Assembly: GCF_022809775.1 (NCBI RefSeq)
Contig: NZ_CP094380.1
Location: forward strand, 3,447,501-3,511,500
Origin: Pseudodesulfovibrio tunisiensis
GTDB taxonomy: Bacteria > Desulfobacterota > Desulfovibrionia > Desulfovibrionales > Desulfovibrionaceae
Direction: 5' to 3'
Length of the DNA: 64,000 bases
Shown here: piece after piece, positions 8,954 through 41,744 of the stretch
How positions within the stretch are numbered: position 1 is the stretch's first letter
Layout: each line of letters begins with the position of its first letter
Notes under the pieces: generated by a model
Told to the model about the DNA's origin: nothing
Databases searched by the model: none
What the model saw: the letters and a program-made list of their open reading frames with translations, nothing else
Program-made: the position numbers and the translations under genes

Positions 8954-9029
8954 TGGAGCCAGAGATGAGACTTGAACCCACGACCTGCTGATTACGAATC
9001 AGCTGCTCTACCAACTGAGCTACTCTGGC
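8954..9029 (-). tRNA. tRNA-Thr (anticodon CGU)
   Basis: On the minus strand a 76-base cloverleaf starts GCCAGAG and ends CTCTGGCTCCA, with a 7-bp acceptor stem and encoded CCA. The anticodon arm is GCTGA-TTCGTAA-TCAGC, giving CGU, which reads ACG threonine codons. The T arm contains GGTTCAAGT. It is the likely attachment site of the element to its left. Confidence 0.95.
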
Positions 9030-35116: not shown

Positions 35117-35491
35117 ATGACCAGAAAGACGATCATCTCCATGCTGGCGGTGGCCCTGGTGTGCATCTTCTTCCTCCCCGCCTTTTCGCAGGAGGATATC
35201 AAACAGCTTGCGGACCCGGCTTTTGAACAGCCCCAGCGGCCCGCAGTGCCGTTCATGCACGACGAACACAATGAAAAGGCCGGTCTTGACGGCTGCCTGC
35301 CCTGCCACCATGAAGGCAAGGAAAACGGTGAGCTGGTCGAAGGCGATCCCGTGCCTTGCGCGGAATGCCATTCTGTCGAGGGCGACGGCGACGTCCTGCC
35401 CCTGATGCTGGCCTATCACAAGCAGTGCGGCGATTGTCATGCTGCCGAGAAAAAGGGACCGCTGGCCTGTGGCGAGTGCCACCAGCGGTAA
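35117..35491 (+). CDS. tmcA: TmcA, type II tetrahaem cytochrome c3
   Basis: 124 residues with a cleavable signal (ending PAFSQ) and four haem sites, CLPCH, CAECH, CGDCH and CGECH. Short size, acidic character and HDEHN/YHK axial His residues match type II cytochrome c3 (TmcA), which takes electrons from hydrogenase via type I c3. It ends the tmc operon, nine bases after tmcB. Confidence 0.92.
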   Translation: MTRKTIISMLAVALVCIFFLPAFSQEDIKQLADPAFEQPQRPAVPFMHDEHNEKAGLDGCLPCHHEGKENGELVEGDPVPCAECHSVEGDGDVLPLMLAYHKQCGDCHAAEKKGPLACGECHQR

Positions 35492-35566
35492 CGGGCTTCA
35501 CTCCAGCCCATAAAAAAGAGCAGGCCGTCGGACCGCCCTTCGACGGCTTTCGCTGACCATCACTCG

Positions 35567-35605
35567 ACTCCCGGTTCCGGTTCGCTGGAATCGGGAGTTC
35601 TTTTT
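35567..35605 (+). terminator. Intrinsic terminator after tmcA
   Basis: ACTCCCGGTTCC (35567-35578) and GGAATCGGGAGT (35587-35598) form a 12-bp stem with one mismatch, followed by TCTTTTT. Confidence 0.85.
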
Positions 35606-35875
35606 GGGGGAAGGAATGCCTCCGACTATCAGCGGAAGCTGATTCGGCCTGTCCGGGGCCTCACCCTTCGGGCGTGGCAAATCCAGCGTCCGAATCCGCA
35701 GTTCTGCGGATTTGTCGATGTCCTTTGCTTCCCGCCGTCCACAAGGGCAAGCGAGCCTGTCCATCTGTCTTGGCGATGTCGTTGGTCGTGGGTGCGCCGA
35801 ATTTGTCTCATCGAGAAACAGGATTCAGGGAAAATTGGACAAACAAGGAAATCGTTTTTCTCTTTCGGACCACCC
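35606..35875. other. Non-coding stretch between tmc terminator and structured repeat
   Basis: About 270 bases with no supported gene. Short frames on both strands (for example from 35674 and 35712) have no ribosome sites or recognisable products. Positions 35838-35870 are T-rich. Confidence 0.4.
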
Positions 35876-36012
35876 GTTTCAAGAATTTGAAGAGGCCGGA
35901 TGCATGTCCCGGCAGGGCATGCATCCGGCCTCTTCAAATTCTTGAAACATATGGGAATCCAAGGGGCCTTGCTCCTTGGCAGGTCTGGGCAGCGCCCAGC
36001 CTCCCGGGAGGG
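35876..36012 (+). repeat. Structured repeat element, copy 1
   Basis: It opens with a perfect 31-bp inverted repeat (35876-35906 and 35918-35948; arms start GTTTCAAGAATTTGAAGAGG), loop TCCCGGCAGGG. A tail follows (35950-36012) with CCTTGCTCCTTGG, the small hairpin CTGGGC-AGC-GCCCAG and CCCGGGAGGG. A second copy lies at 40532-40666: the tail is nearly identical and the long stem has a different sequence but the same length and an 11-base loop. Loop-proximal CCC/GGG here is CTC/GAG there, and T-A of the tail hairpin becomes C-G, so pairing is preserved. Confidence 0.8.
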
Positions 36013-36177
36013 CCGTCGGAGACATTTCCCTGTTTTTTTCAGGAAGAGAAAGTCTGTGTGTTCGGTACCGGGTTGCCAGTGGTTTCATTGACAGTTCTGT
36101 AACAGGGTTGTAACAACACCCGGTCACGGTGTAAACGGTCGCACAAAACCGTCCATTACCTAAAAGAGAGGGTATAC

Positions 36178-37197
36178 ATGAAATTCAAGTGCAAGTCCTT
36201 GTTGGTACTGGCTTTTATGGTGGCGTTCGCCTCCTCGGCCTTTGCTGGCACTCTGGAAGACGTCAAGAAGAAGGGATACATCACTCTTGGCGTGAGCGAA
36301 GGCGTGGTTGGGTTTTCCGCTCCGGATTCCGATGGCAAATGGGTTGGCTTCGACGTCGACATGGGCCGTGCGGTTGCCGCTGCGGTTCTGGGCGATTCCA
36401 ATGCTCTGAAGTTCGTTCCGCTGGCTTCCAAGCAGAAGATCGTGGCCGTTTCCTCCGGTCAGGTCGATCTGGCTCCCCGCACCACCACCTGGACCCTGAA
36501 GCGCGACGCCAAGCAGGGCGTGGATTTCACCGTGGTAATGTTCTACGATGGTCAGGGTTTCATGGTCCGCAAGGATTTGGGACTCACTTCCGCCAAGGAA
36601 CTGGACGGCGCTTCTGTTTCCGTGACCTCCGGCACCTCCAACGAGCTGAACGTGGCCGATTTTGCCCGTGCCAACGGCATCAAGCTGGAGACCGTTGTCT
36701 TCGACAGCAAGAAGGAAGCGTTTCAGGCGTACCTTGCCGGACGCGTGGATGCCTTCACCACGGATGCAAGCCAGCTTGCCGCCATGCGCGCCATGGCTCC
36801 GAACGCCAGTGAGCATGTGATCCTTCCCGAACGCATTTCCAAGGAACCGCTGGCTCCGTATGTCCGCCATGGCGACAATCAGTGGAAGGACCTGGTCACC
36901 TGGGTCATGTACGGCCTGATCGAGGCCGAGGAAAAGGGCATCACTCAGGCCAACGTGCTTGAGATGAAGACCAAATCCGATGACCCCATGGTCAAGCGCA
37001 TGCTTGGCGTGACCGGCGATACCGGTTCGTTCCTGAATCTGGACAACGACTGGCTGGTCCGGGCCATTCAGGCCGTGGGCAACTATGGCGAGATGTACAA
37101 TCGCTACTTCGGTCCTGACACCCAGCTGAATCTTCCCCGCGAACGCAACGAATTGTGGACCCGTGGCGGCCTGCTGTACGCCATGCCCATCCGCTAG
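36178..37197 (+). CDS. aapJ: Amino-acid ABC transporter, periplasmic binding protein (AapJ/BztA type)
   Basis: 339 residues with a signal peptide (ending SAFAG) and the family-3 solute-binding fold: LGVSEGVVGFS, GFDVDMGRAVAAAVLG, FVPLASKQKIVAVSSGQVDL and the hinge stretch SVTSGTSNE. The length and the C-terminal extension ending RGGLLYAMPIR are specific to the AapJ/BztA group for general L-amino acids (Glu, Gln, Asp, Asn). It leads an operon with two long permeases and one ATPase. The leader at 36100-36175 is AT-rich and contains the short inverted repeat ACGGT...ACCGT. Confidence 0.9.
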   Translation: MKFKCKSLLVLAFMVAFASSAFAGTLEDVKKKGYITLGVSEGVVGFSAPDSDGKWVGFDVDMGRAVAAAVLGDSNALKFVPLASKQKIVAVSSGQVDLAPRTTTWTLKRDAKQGVDFTVVMFYDGQGFMVRKDLGLTSAKELDGASVSVTSGTSNELNVADFARANGIKLETVVFDSKKEAFQAYLAGRVDAFTTDASQLAAMRAMAPNASEHVILPERISKEPLAPYVRHGDNQWKDLVTWVMYGLIEAEEKGITQANVLEMKTKSDDPMVKRMLGVTGDTGSFLNLDNDWLVRAIQAVGNYGEMYNRYFGPDTQLNLPRERNELWTRGGLLYAMPIR

Positions 37198-37277
37198 TTC
37201 GCCAGACCCGAATACGACCCGGCCGGGCCGCCATTGTGCGGCTCGGCCGATTCGCTTTTCCTGAAACAGGCAGTACT

Positions 37278-38432
37278 ATGTCCCCAGATTCAGCTTTCAA
37301 GGACCGCATACCCATGCTGCTGGTGCAGACCGCAGTGGTGGGCATTCTCATATATTTCGCCCTGACCCTGTTCCACAACACCCAGGCCAATCTGGAGGCG
37401 AGGAACATTGCGTCGGGCTACGGCTTCATGTCCGTGGAGGGCGGCCTGCCCATCAACGACACCCTGTTGCCGTACAAACCGAGCGACTCCTACGGATACG
37501 CCTTTTTCATGGGTGTACTGAACACCCTGTACGTGGCCGTGATCAGCATCGTCCTGTCCACGATCCTCGGCGTTATCGTGGGCTGTGCGCGGGTGTCCAC
37601 CAACTGGCTCGTGTCCAGACTGGCGGCCGTGTATGTCGAGGTGCTCAGAAACATTCCGCTCCTTCTCACGCTTTTCTTCTGCTACTCCGTGGTGCTGGCT
37701 TCCCTGCCACATCCTCGCAAAAGTCTGGAGCCGATTTCCGGCGTGTTCCTGAACAACCGGGGGCTTTTTCTGCCGAGACCGGAATTTCAGGACGGATTTC
37801 TGTGGGTGGCGCTTGCCGCGGTCGTGGCGCTGATTGCGTCCTTTGTGCTGATTCGCCGGGCGCGTCGTCTGCGGGAGGAAACCGGCAAGGGGTTTCATGC
37901 CGGATGGATCGCCCTCGGCCTGTGCGTGGTGTTGCCGGGCATTGCCTGGCTCGTGACACCCGAAGCCGTGACCTTTGATTTTGCCAAGCTCAAGGGATTC
38001 AATTTCAAGGGCGGCATGGTGCTTCGGCCCGAATTTACCGCGCTGCTCACTGGTCTTGTTCTGTACACGGCAGCGTTCATTGCGGAAAACGTGCGCAGCG
38101 GCATTCAGTCCGTGAGCCGGGGACAGCTCGAGGCGGCCAAGGCGCTTGGGCTCAAGCCGGGGCTGACCATGCGTCGGGTGGTGCTGCCTCAGGCCCTGCG
38201 AGTCTGTGTACCCGCCACGACCAACGACTATGCCAGTCTGGTCAAGAACAGCTCGCTGGCCGTGGCCATCGGCTATCCGGACATGGTGTCCATCGGCGGC
38301 ACCATCATCGGCCAGAATGATCAGGCCGTGGAGATCATCGGCCTGTGGATGGCGGTGTACCTGTCCATCAATCTGTGCATTTCCCTGTTCATGAACTGGT
38401 TCAACGCCCGAGTGCAGTTGGTGGAGCGGTAG
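37278..38432 (+). CDS. aapQ: Amino-acid ABC transporter permease 1 (AapQ/BztB type)
   Basis: 384 residues from ATG 37278 (the frame stays open upstream into aapJ, but no ribosome site supports it). About eight membrane helices; the conserved permease loop appears as AAKALGLKPGLTMRRVVLPQALRV, the EAA motif that contacts the ATPase. An insertion of about 120 residues between the first core helices is typical of AapQ compared with short HisQ/GlnP-type permeases. The protein forms a heterodimer with the next gene's product. Confidence 0.88.
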   Translation: MSPDSAFKDRIPMLLVQTAVVGILIYFALTLFHNTQANLEARNIASGYGFMSVEGGLPINDTLLPYKPSDSYGYAFFMGVLNTLYVAVISIVLSTILGVIVGCARVSTNWLVSRLAAVYVEVLRNIPLLLTLFFCYSVVLASLPHPRKSLEPISGVFLNNRGLFLPRPEFQDGFLWVALAAVVALIASFVLIRRARRLREETGKGFHAGWIALGLCVVLPGIAWLVTPEAVTFDFAKLKGFNFKGGMVLRPEFTALLTGLVLYTAAFIAENVRSGIQSVSRGQLEAAKALGLKPGLTMRRVVLPQALRVCVPATTNDYASLVKNSSLAVAIGYPDMVSIGGTIIGQNDQAVEIIGLWMAVYLSINLCISLFMNWFNARVQLVER

Positions 38433-38433
38433 C

Positions 38434-39546
38434 ATGGAAACGACAAACGCGATGAATGAACCCAAGGTTTTCAGTCCTTTGCCCCAGCTTCCTCCGCCGC
38501 CCAGTTCCATCGGTGTTGCGGGGTGGCTCAAGGCCAATCTGTTCAACGGCTGGTTCAATTCCATTCTGACGCTTTGCAGCGTGGGACTGCTGCTCAAGGT
38601 TGTCCCGCCTCTGGTTTCCTGGGCGTTGCTGGATGCCTGCTGGATCGGGGAACCGGGCCAGTGCGATCAGACCGGGGGCGCATGCTGGGCCTTTGTGTTC
38701 CACAAGATGCGGCTGCTGCTTACCGGCACCTATCCGTCGGAATTCGTGTGGCGGCCTTCGATTGCCGGGATTCTGTTCGTGCTCATGGCTGCGGCCACGG
38801 TTTCGGGCAAGGTCAAGGCGCGGTATCTGGTTCCGGGCTGGGGGCTGCTCACGGTCCTGTCCTTCTGGCTCATCGGCGGAGGCGCGGGATTGGCGCATGT
38901 GGATCAGTCCATGTGGGGCGGTCTCATGCTCAGCCTCGGGCTGGCTGCCATCGGCATTCTGATTTCCGTGCCGCTCGGCATCCTGCTGGCTCTGGGCCGG
39001 CAAAGCTCCCTCGGCATGATCCGGCCGCTGTGCATCGCCATCATCGAACCCATCCGGGGCGTTCCCCTGATCACCATCCTGTTCATGGCCTCGGTCATGA
39101 TGCCTTTGTTTCTGCCCCCGGGAATGCAGGTGAACAATCTGCTGCGCGTTCAGGTGGGCATCATTCTGTTTTCCTCGGCCTACATGGCCGAAGTGGTGCG
39201 CGGCGGACTTCAGGCCGTTCCCAAGGGACAGCTTGACGCGGCCAAGGCACTTGGTCTGTCCTACTGGAAGCTGACCCTGCTCGTGGTGCTGCCTCAGGCT
39301 CTGCGGCATGTGCTTCCCGCGCTCATCGGCCGCTGCATTGCTCTGTTCAAGGATACGTCTCTGGTCATCATCGTGGGCCTGCTGGATTTTCTCGGCATTG
39401 CCAAGGCCGCGGCGCAGGATCAGGATTGGCTCGGCTGCGACGCCGAAGCCTACGTGTTCTGCGCCTTTGTCTACTGGTGCATCTGTTTCGGCATGAGCCG
39501 TTACGGGCGGTCCCTGGAAAAACGCGGTCCCAAGACCAACAAGTAA
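38434..39546 (+). CDS. aapM: Amino-acid ABC transporter permease 2 (AapM/BztC type)
   Basis: 370 residues starting one base after aapQ's stop. A Pro-rich N-terminus is followed by about eight membrane helices and the EAA loop AAKALGLSYWKLTLLVVLPQALRHV. It pairs with AapQ in the membrane. Homology between the two EAA loops is obvious. No unusual feature is visible. Confidence 0.88.
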   Translation: METTNAMNEPKVFSPLPQLPPPPSSIGVAGWLKANLFNGWFNSILTLCSVGLLLKVVPPLVSWALLDACWIGEPGQCDQTGGACWAFVFHKMRLLLTGTYPSEFVWRPSIAGILFVLMAAATVSGKVKARYLVPGWGLLTVLSFWLIGGGAGLAHVDQSMWGGLMLSLGLAAIGILISVPLGILLALGRQSSLGMIRPLCIAIIEPIRGVPLITILFMASVMMPLFLPPGMQVNNLLRVQVGIILFSSAYMAEVVRGGLQAVPKGQLDAAKALGLSYWKLTLLVVLPQALRHVLPALIGRCIALFKDTSLVIIVGLLDFLGIAKAAAQDQDWLGCDAEAYVFCAFVYWCICFGMSRYGRSLEKRGPKTNK

Positions 39547-39558
39547 GAGGTGGCGAAC

Positions 39559-40305
39559 ATGCCTTCCCGTGAAATCGTCATAGACGTGAAAGACCTCAAC
39601 AAGTGGTACGGTTCGTTCCACGTTCTCAAGAATATCAATCTTCAGGTCCACCGGGGCGAGCGCATCGTGGTATGCGGCCCGTCCGGGTCGGGCAAGTCCA
39701 CGCTCATCCGGTGCATGAACCGGCTGGAAACCCACCAGCAGGGGCGGATCGTGGTCAACGGCATCGAATTGACCGGCAATCTCAAGGGGCTGGAGAAAAT
39801 CCGGCGCGAGGTGGGCATGGTGTTTCAGAGTTTCAACCTGTTCCCGCACATGTCCGTGCTGGACAACCTGACTCTTGCTCCGGTCTGGGTGCGGCACATG
39901 CCGCGCAAGGAGGCCGTGGAGCAGGCCATGCATTATCTCAGCCGCGTTCGCATTGCGGAACAGGCGGACAAGTTTCCGGGACAGCTTTCCGGCGGTCAGC
40001 AGCAGCGCGTGGCCATTGCCCGTGCCCTGTGCATGAATCCCTCGGTGCTTCTGTTTGATGAACCCACATCCGCACTTGATCCGGAAATGATCAAGGAAGT
40101 GCTCGACGTCATGATCGAACTGGCGGAAGAGGACATGACCATGGTCTGCGTTACCCACGAAATGGGCTTTGCCCGCACCGTGGCCGATCGCGTCATCTTC
40201 ATGGACGGCGGAGAAATCGTCGAGGAAAATACCCCCGAGGAATTCTTCAACAATCCCCAATTCGATCGCACGCGCCTCTTTTTGAGCCAGATTCTCCAAC
40301 ATTAG
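39559..40305 (+). CDS. aapP: Amino-acid ABC transporter ATPase (AapP/GlnQ type)
   Basis: 248 residues starting [10 protein letters not shown], with AGAGG upstream; a GTG nine bases earlier is possible. Walker [11 protein letters not shown]-loop in [11 protein letters not shown], signature [15 protein letters not shown], Walker [13 protein letters not shown] and switch His in CVTHEMGFA are all intact. It drives amino-acid import through AapQM. It ends the operon just before a set of hairpins. Confidence 0.93.
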
Positions 40306-40326
40306 AAGAAGATATGCCTTCGGCGA

Positions 40327-40439
40327 CTCAAGAACCTTTTCAAGAAAAGGTTCTTGAGAATCTCCCAAAGTTTGCTGGTTCTACGCCGCCTGTACGGGAT
40401 GAGGAAACTTGTCCGATCAGCACGGCGGCGTAGGGAGAT
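40327..40439 (+). other. Hairpin cluster behind the aap operon
   Basis: CTCAAGAACCTTTTC (40327-40341) and GAAAAGGTTCTTGAG (40344-40358) form a perfect inverted repeat separated by two bases, 22 bases after the aapP stop; no T-run follows. Then come nested stems ATCTCCC (40360-40366)/GGGAGAT (40433-40439) around CTACGCCGCC (40381-40390)/GGCGGCGTAG (40424-40433), which share one base. The first hairpin may end the aap transcript; the nested pair looks like a folded RNA. Confidence 0.65.
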
Positions 40440-40531
40440 GCGGAAGAACCTGACTTGTCCTGTCGAAAAACCGAGCTTCGTGGAAATGAGGAGAAAGAAA
40501 GCGAAAAGTTTTTTCCTGATATCCTTCCCGT

Positions 40532-40666
40532 CTTGAGAATCGGAAAAGGCCCGAGGAATGTCTCGCCAGAGCATTCATCGGGCCTTTTCCGATTCTCGAG
40601 ACAGAATGGGGATCCAGGGGGCCTTGCTCCTTGGCGGGTCCGGGCAGCGCCCGCCCCCCGGGAGGG
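40532..40666 (+). repeat. Structured repeat element, copy 2
   Basis: Arms of 29 bases (40532-40560 starting CTTGAGAATCGGAAAAGGCC, and 40572-40600) pair with one G-T and one mismatch around the 11-base loop TCTCGCCAGAG. The tail (40606-40666) repeats copy 1 with few changes, including CCTTGCTCCTTGG and CGGGC-AGC-GCCCG. Both copies have the same orientation and enclose exactly the aapJQMP operon. It ends 14 bases before the stop codon of the minus-strand phosphatase gene. Confidence 0.8.
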
Positions 40667-40679
40667 TCACCGAAGGCCT

Positions 40680-41744
40680 TCAGTTGTCCATCATGAACCG
40701 GAAAATGGCTTCCATGAACTTGCCGGACACCACATCGGGCAGGGCGAATTTCGGCAGGTTGTCGCCGGGCAGGGTGCCGACGTAGGCGAAATAGATTTCC
40801 TGAGACAGCCGGGTCAGTCCCGGTGCCAGATTCGAATCCCAGAGTTCGGAGCGCTGTCCGGCCTCCATGTCGTAGGAGCGGCATTGCAGGGGCCGCTGCG
40901 CAAAAAGCAGGCACGTGCCTTCCTCAAGCAGCGGACAGACCGCCCCGGCCTGCGACAGGCAGTACTCGGTGCTTTCGCCTTCCGGCCCGAAATCCCGCGC
41001 GGTTTGGCGTTCCTTTCGCGCGGTTTCCACGGCGCGTTCGATCACGTCCAGCCGTTGCTGGCTGGTCAGATGCATGTTTATGCTGTGGCTGAGATGCACG
41101 GCCTCGGCCAGCGTGAGCTTGATGGGCGTGGAGCAGCACCGGTCGTGATCCCTGCCGCACCGCTGGCCCGATTCGGAGGGGAACATGTCCTCCAGCGTCT
41201 GCACCAGCCCTTCGTAGTCGTTGAGAAACGGGGAGAGGTCCACAAGCCGCTTGAATTCGAGACAGGGCTCGCGCACGGTGAGCTTGCCGCTGGATTTGCC
41301 GTATTTGCGGATGGTGCGCCACTGGTTGAAGTTGGCGGGCTTGGACTTGAGTTTTCGCAGGGTCTTGTAGGCCAGCATGTGCCCGAGTCCCCGGCGGAGC
41401 AGGTAGGCGTTGAGCACGGTTCCGGTGCGGCCGATGCCGTGTCGGCAGTGGATGAGCACTTTCTTGCCCAGATAGATGGCCTCGTCCAGCCATGCCAGGG
41501 TCTTTTCCAGCTCCTGAAGGCCGGGCGCCTCCTCGTCCTGAAGCGGAAGGTAGCGGACTTCGAATCCCGCGCCGTGCTCGATGTCGTGCAGATCGCAGAA
41601 TTCGCCGCACAGGTTGAGGATGGCGTCAATGCCCTGATCGCGGATCGCGTCGAGCTGGGCGTGGCTCATGGGGGCCTGCCCAACGGCGAGCTGATCCGTG
41701 ACCCAGGTCAGGACGTAGACGGGCTTATGCCTGGGAATCTTCAT
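40680..41744 (-). CDS. Dual-specificity phosphatase fused to a Cys-rich YkgJ-like domain
   Basis: 354 residues. The first 170 form a dual-specificity / tyrosine phosphatase with the P-loop HCRHGIGRTG (Cys 100, Arg 106) and a general-acid Asp near 70 (LQDEEAPG). The second part (from about 190) has Cys residues in RCGRDHDRCCSTP, EYCLSQ, CPLLEEGTC and CRSYD, the pattern of YkgJ-family putative metal-binding proteins. The fusion is unusual. The gene is the last of a five-gene minus-strand operon and overlaps the preceding gene by 20 bases, so it is probably co-translated with it. The target, protein or nucleotide, is unknown. Confidence 0.8.
   Translation of the reverse strand: MKIPRHKPVYVLTWVTDQLAVGQAPMSHAQLDAIRDQGIDAILNLCGEFCDLHDIEHGAGFEVRYLPLQDEEAPGLQELEKTLAWLDEAIYLGKKVLIHCRHGIGRTGTVLNAYLLRRGLGHMLAYKTLRKLKSKPANFNQWRTIRKYGKSSGKLTVREPCLEFKRLVDLSPFLNDYEGLVQTLEDMFPSESGQRCGRDHDRCCSTPIKLTLAEAVHLSHSINMHLTSQQRLDVIERAVETARKERQTARDFGPEGESTEYCLSQAGAVCPLLEEGTCLLFAQRPLQCRSYDMEAGQRSELWDSNLAPGLTRLSQEIYFAYVGTLPGDNLPKFALPDVVSGKFMEAIFRFMMDN

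What the first reader, a model, noticed from the sequence alone, without database searches (positions are those of the whole stretch)
35876..40666. Covarying structured repeat pair bracketing the aap operon
Two elements of about 135 bases in the same orientation enclose exactly aapJQMP. Their long stems differ in sequence but keep length (31 and 29 bp) and an 11-base loop; loop-proximal CCC/GGG changes to CTC/GAG, and a T-A pair in the tail hairpin changes to C-G. The tail is otherwise highly conserved. Compensatory change points to selection on folding, so this may be a new RNA or hairpin-mobilised repeat family. The direct-repeat bracket could also mobilise the operon.
Basis: seen in the sequence. 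Interest (0 to 1): 0.8.

Follow-up and report, generated by a model that had tools for sequence, protein, structure and literature searches.

The report
Gene-end repeat with locus-specific long hairpins
The two structured repeats around an amino-acid transport operon belong to a non-coding DNA element that recurs dozens of times in this bacterium, mostly where two genes end facing each other; copies join a conserved tail to a long, almost perfect hairpin whose letters change while its pairing is kept.

Summary
The 135-base unit is the right part of a modular element of about 360 bases: end motif, stem-loop, middle stem, long hairpin H1, conserved tail. Pooled searches give 71 positions in this genome, not all read. 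The same plan with other H1 sequences was read in four congeners (22 matches) and, more loosely, at eight loci of six other genera. H1 is intact in 47 of 57 tail-anchored copies; 28 of 34 pairs change on both sides, 98.4% of cells pair, 0 of 500 shuffles match. In one congener arms are 37% identical between copies but self-complementary at 28.7 of 30 positions, against 11.2 across copies. 36 of 57 lie between convergent genes. Close pairs are no commoner than random, and nine aapP relatives lack the tail downstream, so operon mobilisation is not supported. Covariation alone does not prove RNA selection: two copies have an inverted cap, as template switching would give. Best reading: a dispersed, non-autonomous gene-end hairpin block. 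Function and mobility are inferred, not shown.

The parts
35566..35599 (+). ordinary intrinsic terminator behind the preceding cytochrome gene, just before copy 1 (not part of the element)
   Evidence: 15 pairs followed by CTTTTTGGGG
35618..36023 (+). copy 1, whole unit (406 bases); left part divergent, with an insert of about 77 bases (35642-35718, by eye)
35876..35948 (+). copy 1 long hairpin H1 (31 pairs, 11-base cap)
35959..35979 (+). copy 1 tail hairpin H2
35985..35999 (+). copy 1 tail hairpin H3
36012..36023 (+). copy 1 right end motif (GCCGTCGGAGAC)
40316..40677 (+). copy 2, whole unit (362 bases), filling the gap between the aapP stop and the stop of the convergent phosphatase gene
40316..40327 (+). 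copy 2 left end motif GCCTTCGGCGAC
40327..40358 (+). copy 2 stem-loop Ha
   Evidence: I6
40381..40433 (+). copy 2 middle stem CTACGCCGCC..GGCGGCGTAG
   Evidence: kept in the 28 aligned full-length copies with a few changed cells
40530..40602 (+). copy 2 long hairpin H1
40614..40634 (+). copy 2 tail hairpin H2
40640..40653 (+). copy 2 tail hairpin H3
40669..40677 (+). copy 2 right end (ACCGAAGGC), next to the stop of the convergent gene that ends at 40680

Best explanation
It is a dispersed, non-coding, non-autonomous repeat of the Desulfovibrionaceae that settles at gene 3' ends, above all between convergent genes, and most likely works there as a two-way hairpin block. Transcripts from either gene would run into a series of hairpins and then a stem of about 30 pairs that reads much the same from both sides; this would stop 3'-to-5' exonucleases and keep the two convergent transcripts apart. 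Shown: copy number, anatomy, location, pairing kept while sequence changes. Inferred: transcription, the block itself, how copies spread. The arms of H1 are probably kept equal by two forces together: loss of copies that no longer pair, and copying of one arm from the other by template switching.
For: 36 of 57 copies lie between convergent genes, against 6 of 40 neighbouring pairs in the window (my count from the list, a small sample; p 2e-16); 13 of 22 matches read in four congeners also do, 6 more having one unknown side and 3 not. In 30 of 57 copies the right-hand gene runs towards the element and its called stop lies within 7 bases of the nominal element end; in examples elsewhere the border follows a terminator T-run. 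Pairing kept through near-complete sequence change. A Ham1-family gene carries the element in the same orientation in the own genome and 6 congeners, with an unrelated H1; the convergent gene pair of L049 carries a version with a much shorter hairpin in G016.
Against: No RNA data. H1 is no ordinary terminator: 0 of 47 intact copies have 5 or more T in 8 bases after the stem, on either strand. G-U exceeds A-C only weakly (31 against 11 cells but 12 against 9 column pairs in own copies; 17 against 9 in congeners, p 0.17), so there is no clear sign of selection on one RNA strand. 10 of 57 copies lack an intact H1. 12 copies lie between genes both running left to right, 7 between genes both running right to left, 1 between divergent genes. 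For two genes (L004, L060) another species has the element in the opposite orientation, and for L055 at the other end of the gene. The two ends do not covary with each other.
Confidence: 0.45

Rival explanations
1. A purely selfish hairpin element, moved in trans by an unknown enzyme; it survives mainly between convergent genes because insertions elsewhere break promoters or genes, and its arms stay equal by template switching alone.
For: 56 tail matches here and 0-12 in 35 congeners by the same pattern; 20 listed own matches of 328 bases or more at 82-94% identity to L033 (which scored 21 of 97 candidates); inverted caps in L012 and L060; truncated copies (L005, L007, L016, L157, L161).
Against: No target duplication: flanks of 38 copies show inverted AAT/ATT, not direct repeats (by eye). 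No Y1 transposase in the own genome; other enzymes not searched. H1 is intact in 47 of 57. Contact with stop codons is tighter than mere avoidance of genes would give. A clean empty site was not shown.
Confidence: 0.3
2. A DNA-level site: a cruciform-forming sequence that binds gyrase or a nucleoid protein and absorbs supercoils between convergent genes.
For: Long near-perfect inverted repeat; convergent location; weak strand preference of imperfect pairs.
Against: The conserved tail and the other short hairpins are not needed for a cruciform; nothing here tests binding.
Confidence: 0.15
3. A trans-acting structured RNA with its own transcript.
For: Covariation and a shared multi-stem fold.
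Against: No Rfam family at its gathering score in the window apart from a tRNA; the only bacterial likeness of the tail is RF02937 at 28.3 bits against 58.6; H1 sequence differs between copies; a simple scan found no promoter-like site in 35400-41000, but it found none for aapJ either, so it says little.
Confidence: 0.06
4. A bracket that mobilises or regulates the aap operon.
For: Two copies in the same orientation 4.7 kb apart.
Against: Close pairs as frequent as at random; no tail with a long hairpin downstream of aapP in 9 relatives.
Confidence: 0.01

Closest known systems
REP / BIME elements with RAYT transposases
   Same: dispersed extragenic palindromes, modular, with complementary changes in stems (PMC2817692, passages)
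   Different: REPs are 20-40 bases (PMC3733652, abstract in the listing); H1 alone is 73; no Y1 transposase in this genome
Stem-loop containing sequence families of bacterial genomes (PMC2267715, passages; PMC1590033, listing)
   Same: repeated stem-loop sequences in bacterial genomes
   Different: the word Desulfovibrio does not occur in the main text of PMC2267715; here the stem sequence is free and the tail defines the family
MITEs
   Same: non-coding, inverted end motifs, many copies
   Different: no target duplication seen; ends do not covary; no parent element known (none searched except Y1 transposases)
Bidirectional intrinsic terminators between convergent genes (PMC1852404, passages)
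   Same: hairpin between convergent gene ends
   Different: no T-run after H1 in 47 of 47; ordinary terminators are found beside some copies
3' UTR stem-loops of selectively processed and stabilised operons in Clostridium (PMC8219983, abstract in listings)
   Same: stem-loops at gene ends that can protect mRNA
   Different: the abstract does not describe a dispersed repeat with a conserved tail
Rfam RF02937 Clostridiales-2
   Same: partial likeness of the tail of L159, 28.3 bits
   Different: far below the gathering score of 58.6

Membership tests
REP/RAYT | Y1 (REP-associated tyrosine) transposase in the genome | tested here: not met
   PF01797: 0 in the own genome and 0 in G009 (20 model matches); present in 17 of 36 genomes of the genus
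REP/RAYT | palindrome of 20-40 bases | tested here: not met
   H1 is 73 bases, unit about 360
REP/RAYT | GTAG-type head next to the palindrome | not tested
   no search made
MITE | terminal inverted repeats | tested here: inconclusive
   GCCTTCGGCGACC / GGTCGCCGAAGGC present, but the partners do not covary (C-A in 6 of 28, A-C in 5 of 28 at two positions)
MITE | target-site duplication | tested here: not met
   flanks of 38 copies printed and read by eye; inverted AAT/ATT only
MITE | empty sites in relatives | tested here: inconclusive
   aapP relatives lack it downstream but have another neighbour gene
Intrinsic terminator | hairpin followed by a T-run | tested here: not met
   0 of 47 on either strand; no site at H1 in the window
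Structured RNA | covarying conserved fold | tested here: met
   but a DNA process can give the same
Structured RNA | it is transcribed | not testable with these tools
   no RNA data held
Any Rfam 15 family | score at the gathering threshold | tested here: not met
   only a tRNA at 8957-9029 in the window; sub-threshold matches only in four loci and one element

The most novel reading that the evidence does not exclude
A family-wide class of gene-end element in which a conserved tail carries a hypervariable, locus-specific long hairpin that is renewed while staying paired: sequence is free, symmetry is what is inherited, through a template-switching cycle under selection for a two-way 3' barrier between convergent genes.
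Probability: 0.2. Interest if true: 0.8.

Novelty: new variant of a known kind. Interest (0 to 1): 0.6.

Why it matters
If the block reading holds, it shows one way in which convergent genes in these sulfate reducers keep their transcripts apart with a hairpin that is not an ordinary terminator. The many copies with different stems are natural replicates for asking whether long DNA palindromes keep their symmetry by selection or by template switching, a confounder for claims of RNA structure made from covariation.

Tried and rejected
Operon mobilisation: not supported. REP/RAYT: rejected. Arms copied from neighbouring sequence: the longest word shared between an arm and the rest of its locus was at most 13 bases in 69 hairpins (mean 8.7 against 6.8 for letter-shuffled arms, words under 8 counted as 0); slightly above shuffled, but no arm is a copy of its neighbourhood; the rest of each genome was not searched. 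Long-range pairing of the two ends: not borne out by covariation. The pattern was badly designed (0 in the own genome) and serves only as a passing note. The model alignment mixes sense and antisense matches to the palindrome and was not used. Weak matches of model R1 may be any long hairpin, so the counts are upper bounds. Paper searches listed no described family of this kind in Desulfovibrio; only open-licence papers are held and only listings or passages were seen.

Limits and dropped rows: one search kept 57 tail sites; L018 + (C1:3398718) was dropped by the tail filter and L041 (C1:1430778) did not match the tail motif; both are in the list of 71. Six of the 71 (C1:631237, 1310395, 1515863, 2140300, 2964951, 3524979) are model matches of 121-149 bits that I did not read. 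The whole-genome DNA searches scored only part of their candidates (40 of 82, 40 of 73, 40 of 115, 21 of 97). One search used 37 of the 47 intact copies; one search used 28 (intact H1, length 345-368) of the 38 copies. Genes were called with a simple codon-usage script trained on the window, so contexts are approximate. In one search the contexts printed for L107 and L124 are wrong, because these loci are cut off by contig ends (1788 and 1784 bases); L107 was re-read.
Full report
Check. The genome G000 is one contig of 3,609,901 bases; the window is C1:3447501-3511500. Its genus-mate G017 has a contig of 27,494 bases, the length of one contig of the MAG 'Desulfovibrionaceae bacterium isolate MIC098Bin4', the only record found to hold the exact tail pattern in genome contigs (6 stretches; the own genome may be left out there). 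The family name is inferred from that.

Copies. The tail pattern occurs 56 times in the own genome at up to 2 mismatches, 0 for the reversed pattern. I read 57 tail-anchored copies. The end motif GCCTYCGGCGRC occurs 111 times against 2 for the reversed pattern. A search with the left part led to more composites with another H2 (L156 twice, L158, L159, L160, L162) and to three places with the left part only (L157, L161, L163). Pooling tail, left-part and model matches gives 71 positions (list); six of them I did not read.

Anatomy. In many copies the element continues left of H1 for about 210 bases: the end motif just after the stop codon or terminator of the left gene, a stem-loop with several sequence versions, a CTACGCCGCC/GGCGGCGTAG stem, and a purine-rich stretch with a T-run. 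In 28 aligned full-length copies the consensus fold is -154 kcal/mol, covariation term included. The two end motifs are inverted to each other but do not covary (C-A in 6 and A-C in 5 of 28 at two positions), so they are better seen as separate small hairpins. Some copies (L008, L030, L046, L062 and, in part, L001 and L063) carry an extra module in the first stem-loop.

Covariation. Over 41 distinct H1 sequences 98.4% of 1394 cells pair; 28 of 34 pairs have a change on both sides; 0 of 500 shuffles reach any of the five measures; slid partners pair at 30-51%. These counts come from related copies, so cells are not independent. H2 hardly varies in the aligned copies but differs, still paired, in other subfamilies and species. 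Ten of 57 copies lack an intact H1.

Other genomes. Among 36 genomes of the genus the tail pattern occurs in 8, own included. Model R1 matches 34 at E 1e-4 or better, with 10 or more matches in G006, G009, G017, G018, G036, G041, G042 and G043 besides the own genome (weak matches may be any hairpin). Twenty-two matches in G036, G009, G018 and G015 were read: each has a long hairpin (21-30 of 30 inner pairs Watson-Crick) and a tail. In G009 (11 copies) arms are on average 37% identical between copies (one pair up to 83%) and tails 78%; in G036 (6) 30% and 69%; in G018 (4) 57% (up to 97%) and 83%. Self-complementarity is 28.7, 25.7 and 27.5 of 30 against 11.2, 8.9 and 16.0 across copies. In the family, 19 of 129 genomes match R1 at 1e-8, in 10 of 44 genera, own genus included (stricter filters). 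The eight loci printed, from six other genera, show a long hairpin with tail-like hairpins, clearest in L196, L197 and L205.

Place. Contexts of the 57: convergent 36, both left to right 12, both right to left 7, divergent 1, one side unknown 1. Copy 2 fills the gap between aapP and a gene with a dual-specificity phosphatase domain. Copy 1 follows an intrinsic terminator behind a class III cytochrome gene and precedes aapJ.

Same loci in other species. The 24 fetched tail loci of congeners fall into 16 groups. One group (6 species) is the own L025 locus behind a Ham1-family gene: same orientation, different H1. Three more groups share a gene with an own copy: for L004 (G017) and L060 (G013, which seems to lack a long H1) the element is in the opposite orientation, for L055 (G017) it lies at the 3' side of the gene where the own copy lies at its 5' side. 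A further group (L096, L116) shares a gene with L020 that is not next to the element there. The convergent pair of L049 carries a version with a much shorter hairpin in G016, same orientation. So some places are kept and others turn over; I did not show a clean empty site.

Mechanism. The covariation can come from selection on a fold or from template switching, which homogenises arms and inverts spacers (PMC8604942, passages). L060 has its inner stem and cap inverted and L012 its cap, which favours some template switching. The G-U against A-C test is weak. H1 is not followed by a T-run (0 of 47). Near-complete turnover of arms with pairing kept, in many copies and several genera, makes a freely decaying repeat unlikely. 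I therefore favour a dispersed element that acts as a two-way 3' block, at 0.45, over a purely selfish one at 0.3.

Aap. Nine congeners have an aapP relative at 82-85% identity. In the 600 bases downstream none has the tail with a long hairpin: two loose matches to the tail pattern (L132, L133) stand without one, and the 28-pair hairpin of L127 is flanked by A and T runs like a two-way terminator. L127-L129 carry a left module after aapP; L130 and L135 have end motifs. None has the convergent phosphatase gene in the fetched stretch. The aapJ side was not examined. Seven of 70 neighbouring gaps are 5 kb or less, against 6.7 (whole genome) or 8.8 (occupied part) at random. The bracket is best read as chance.

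Noticed in passing
G000:C1:121000-1283000: Only 2 of 71 copies lie in this third of the genome (binomial p 6e-10; the stretch was chosen after seeing the positions); no cause found.
   Followed up: partly
L060:1999-2155 (-) and L012:1424-1579 (+): The hairpin cap (with the inner stem in L060) is inverted relative to the other copies, as expected of template switching or recombination between the arms.
   Followed up: partly
window 35642-35718; also L008, L030, L046, L062, L063: An extra module (GATTCGGCC..TTTGTCG) sits in the first stem-loop of some copies and looks like a nested repeat.
   Followed up: no
L067, L070 (G011, G007): The left module occurs several times in close succession in two congeners.
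   Followed up: no
G126 (another genus of the family): 14 matches of GCCTCCGGCGGCCGGGGRAAC, perhaps a related end module.
   Followed up: no
L122, L071 (G017): A second long hairpin (GTCCCGAAGG..CCTTCGGGAC) lies in the same intergenic regions.
   Followed up: no
L127 (G047), about 215 bases behind aapP: A 28-pair palindrome with A and T runs, apparently a two-way terminator, where the own genome has copy 2.
   Followed up: partly
L159, tail 2260-2342: Weak likeness of the tail to Rfam Clostridiales-2 (28.3 bits, gathering 58.6).
   Followed up: partly
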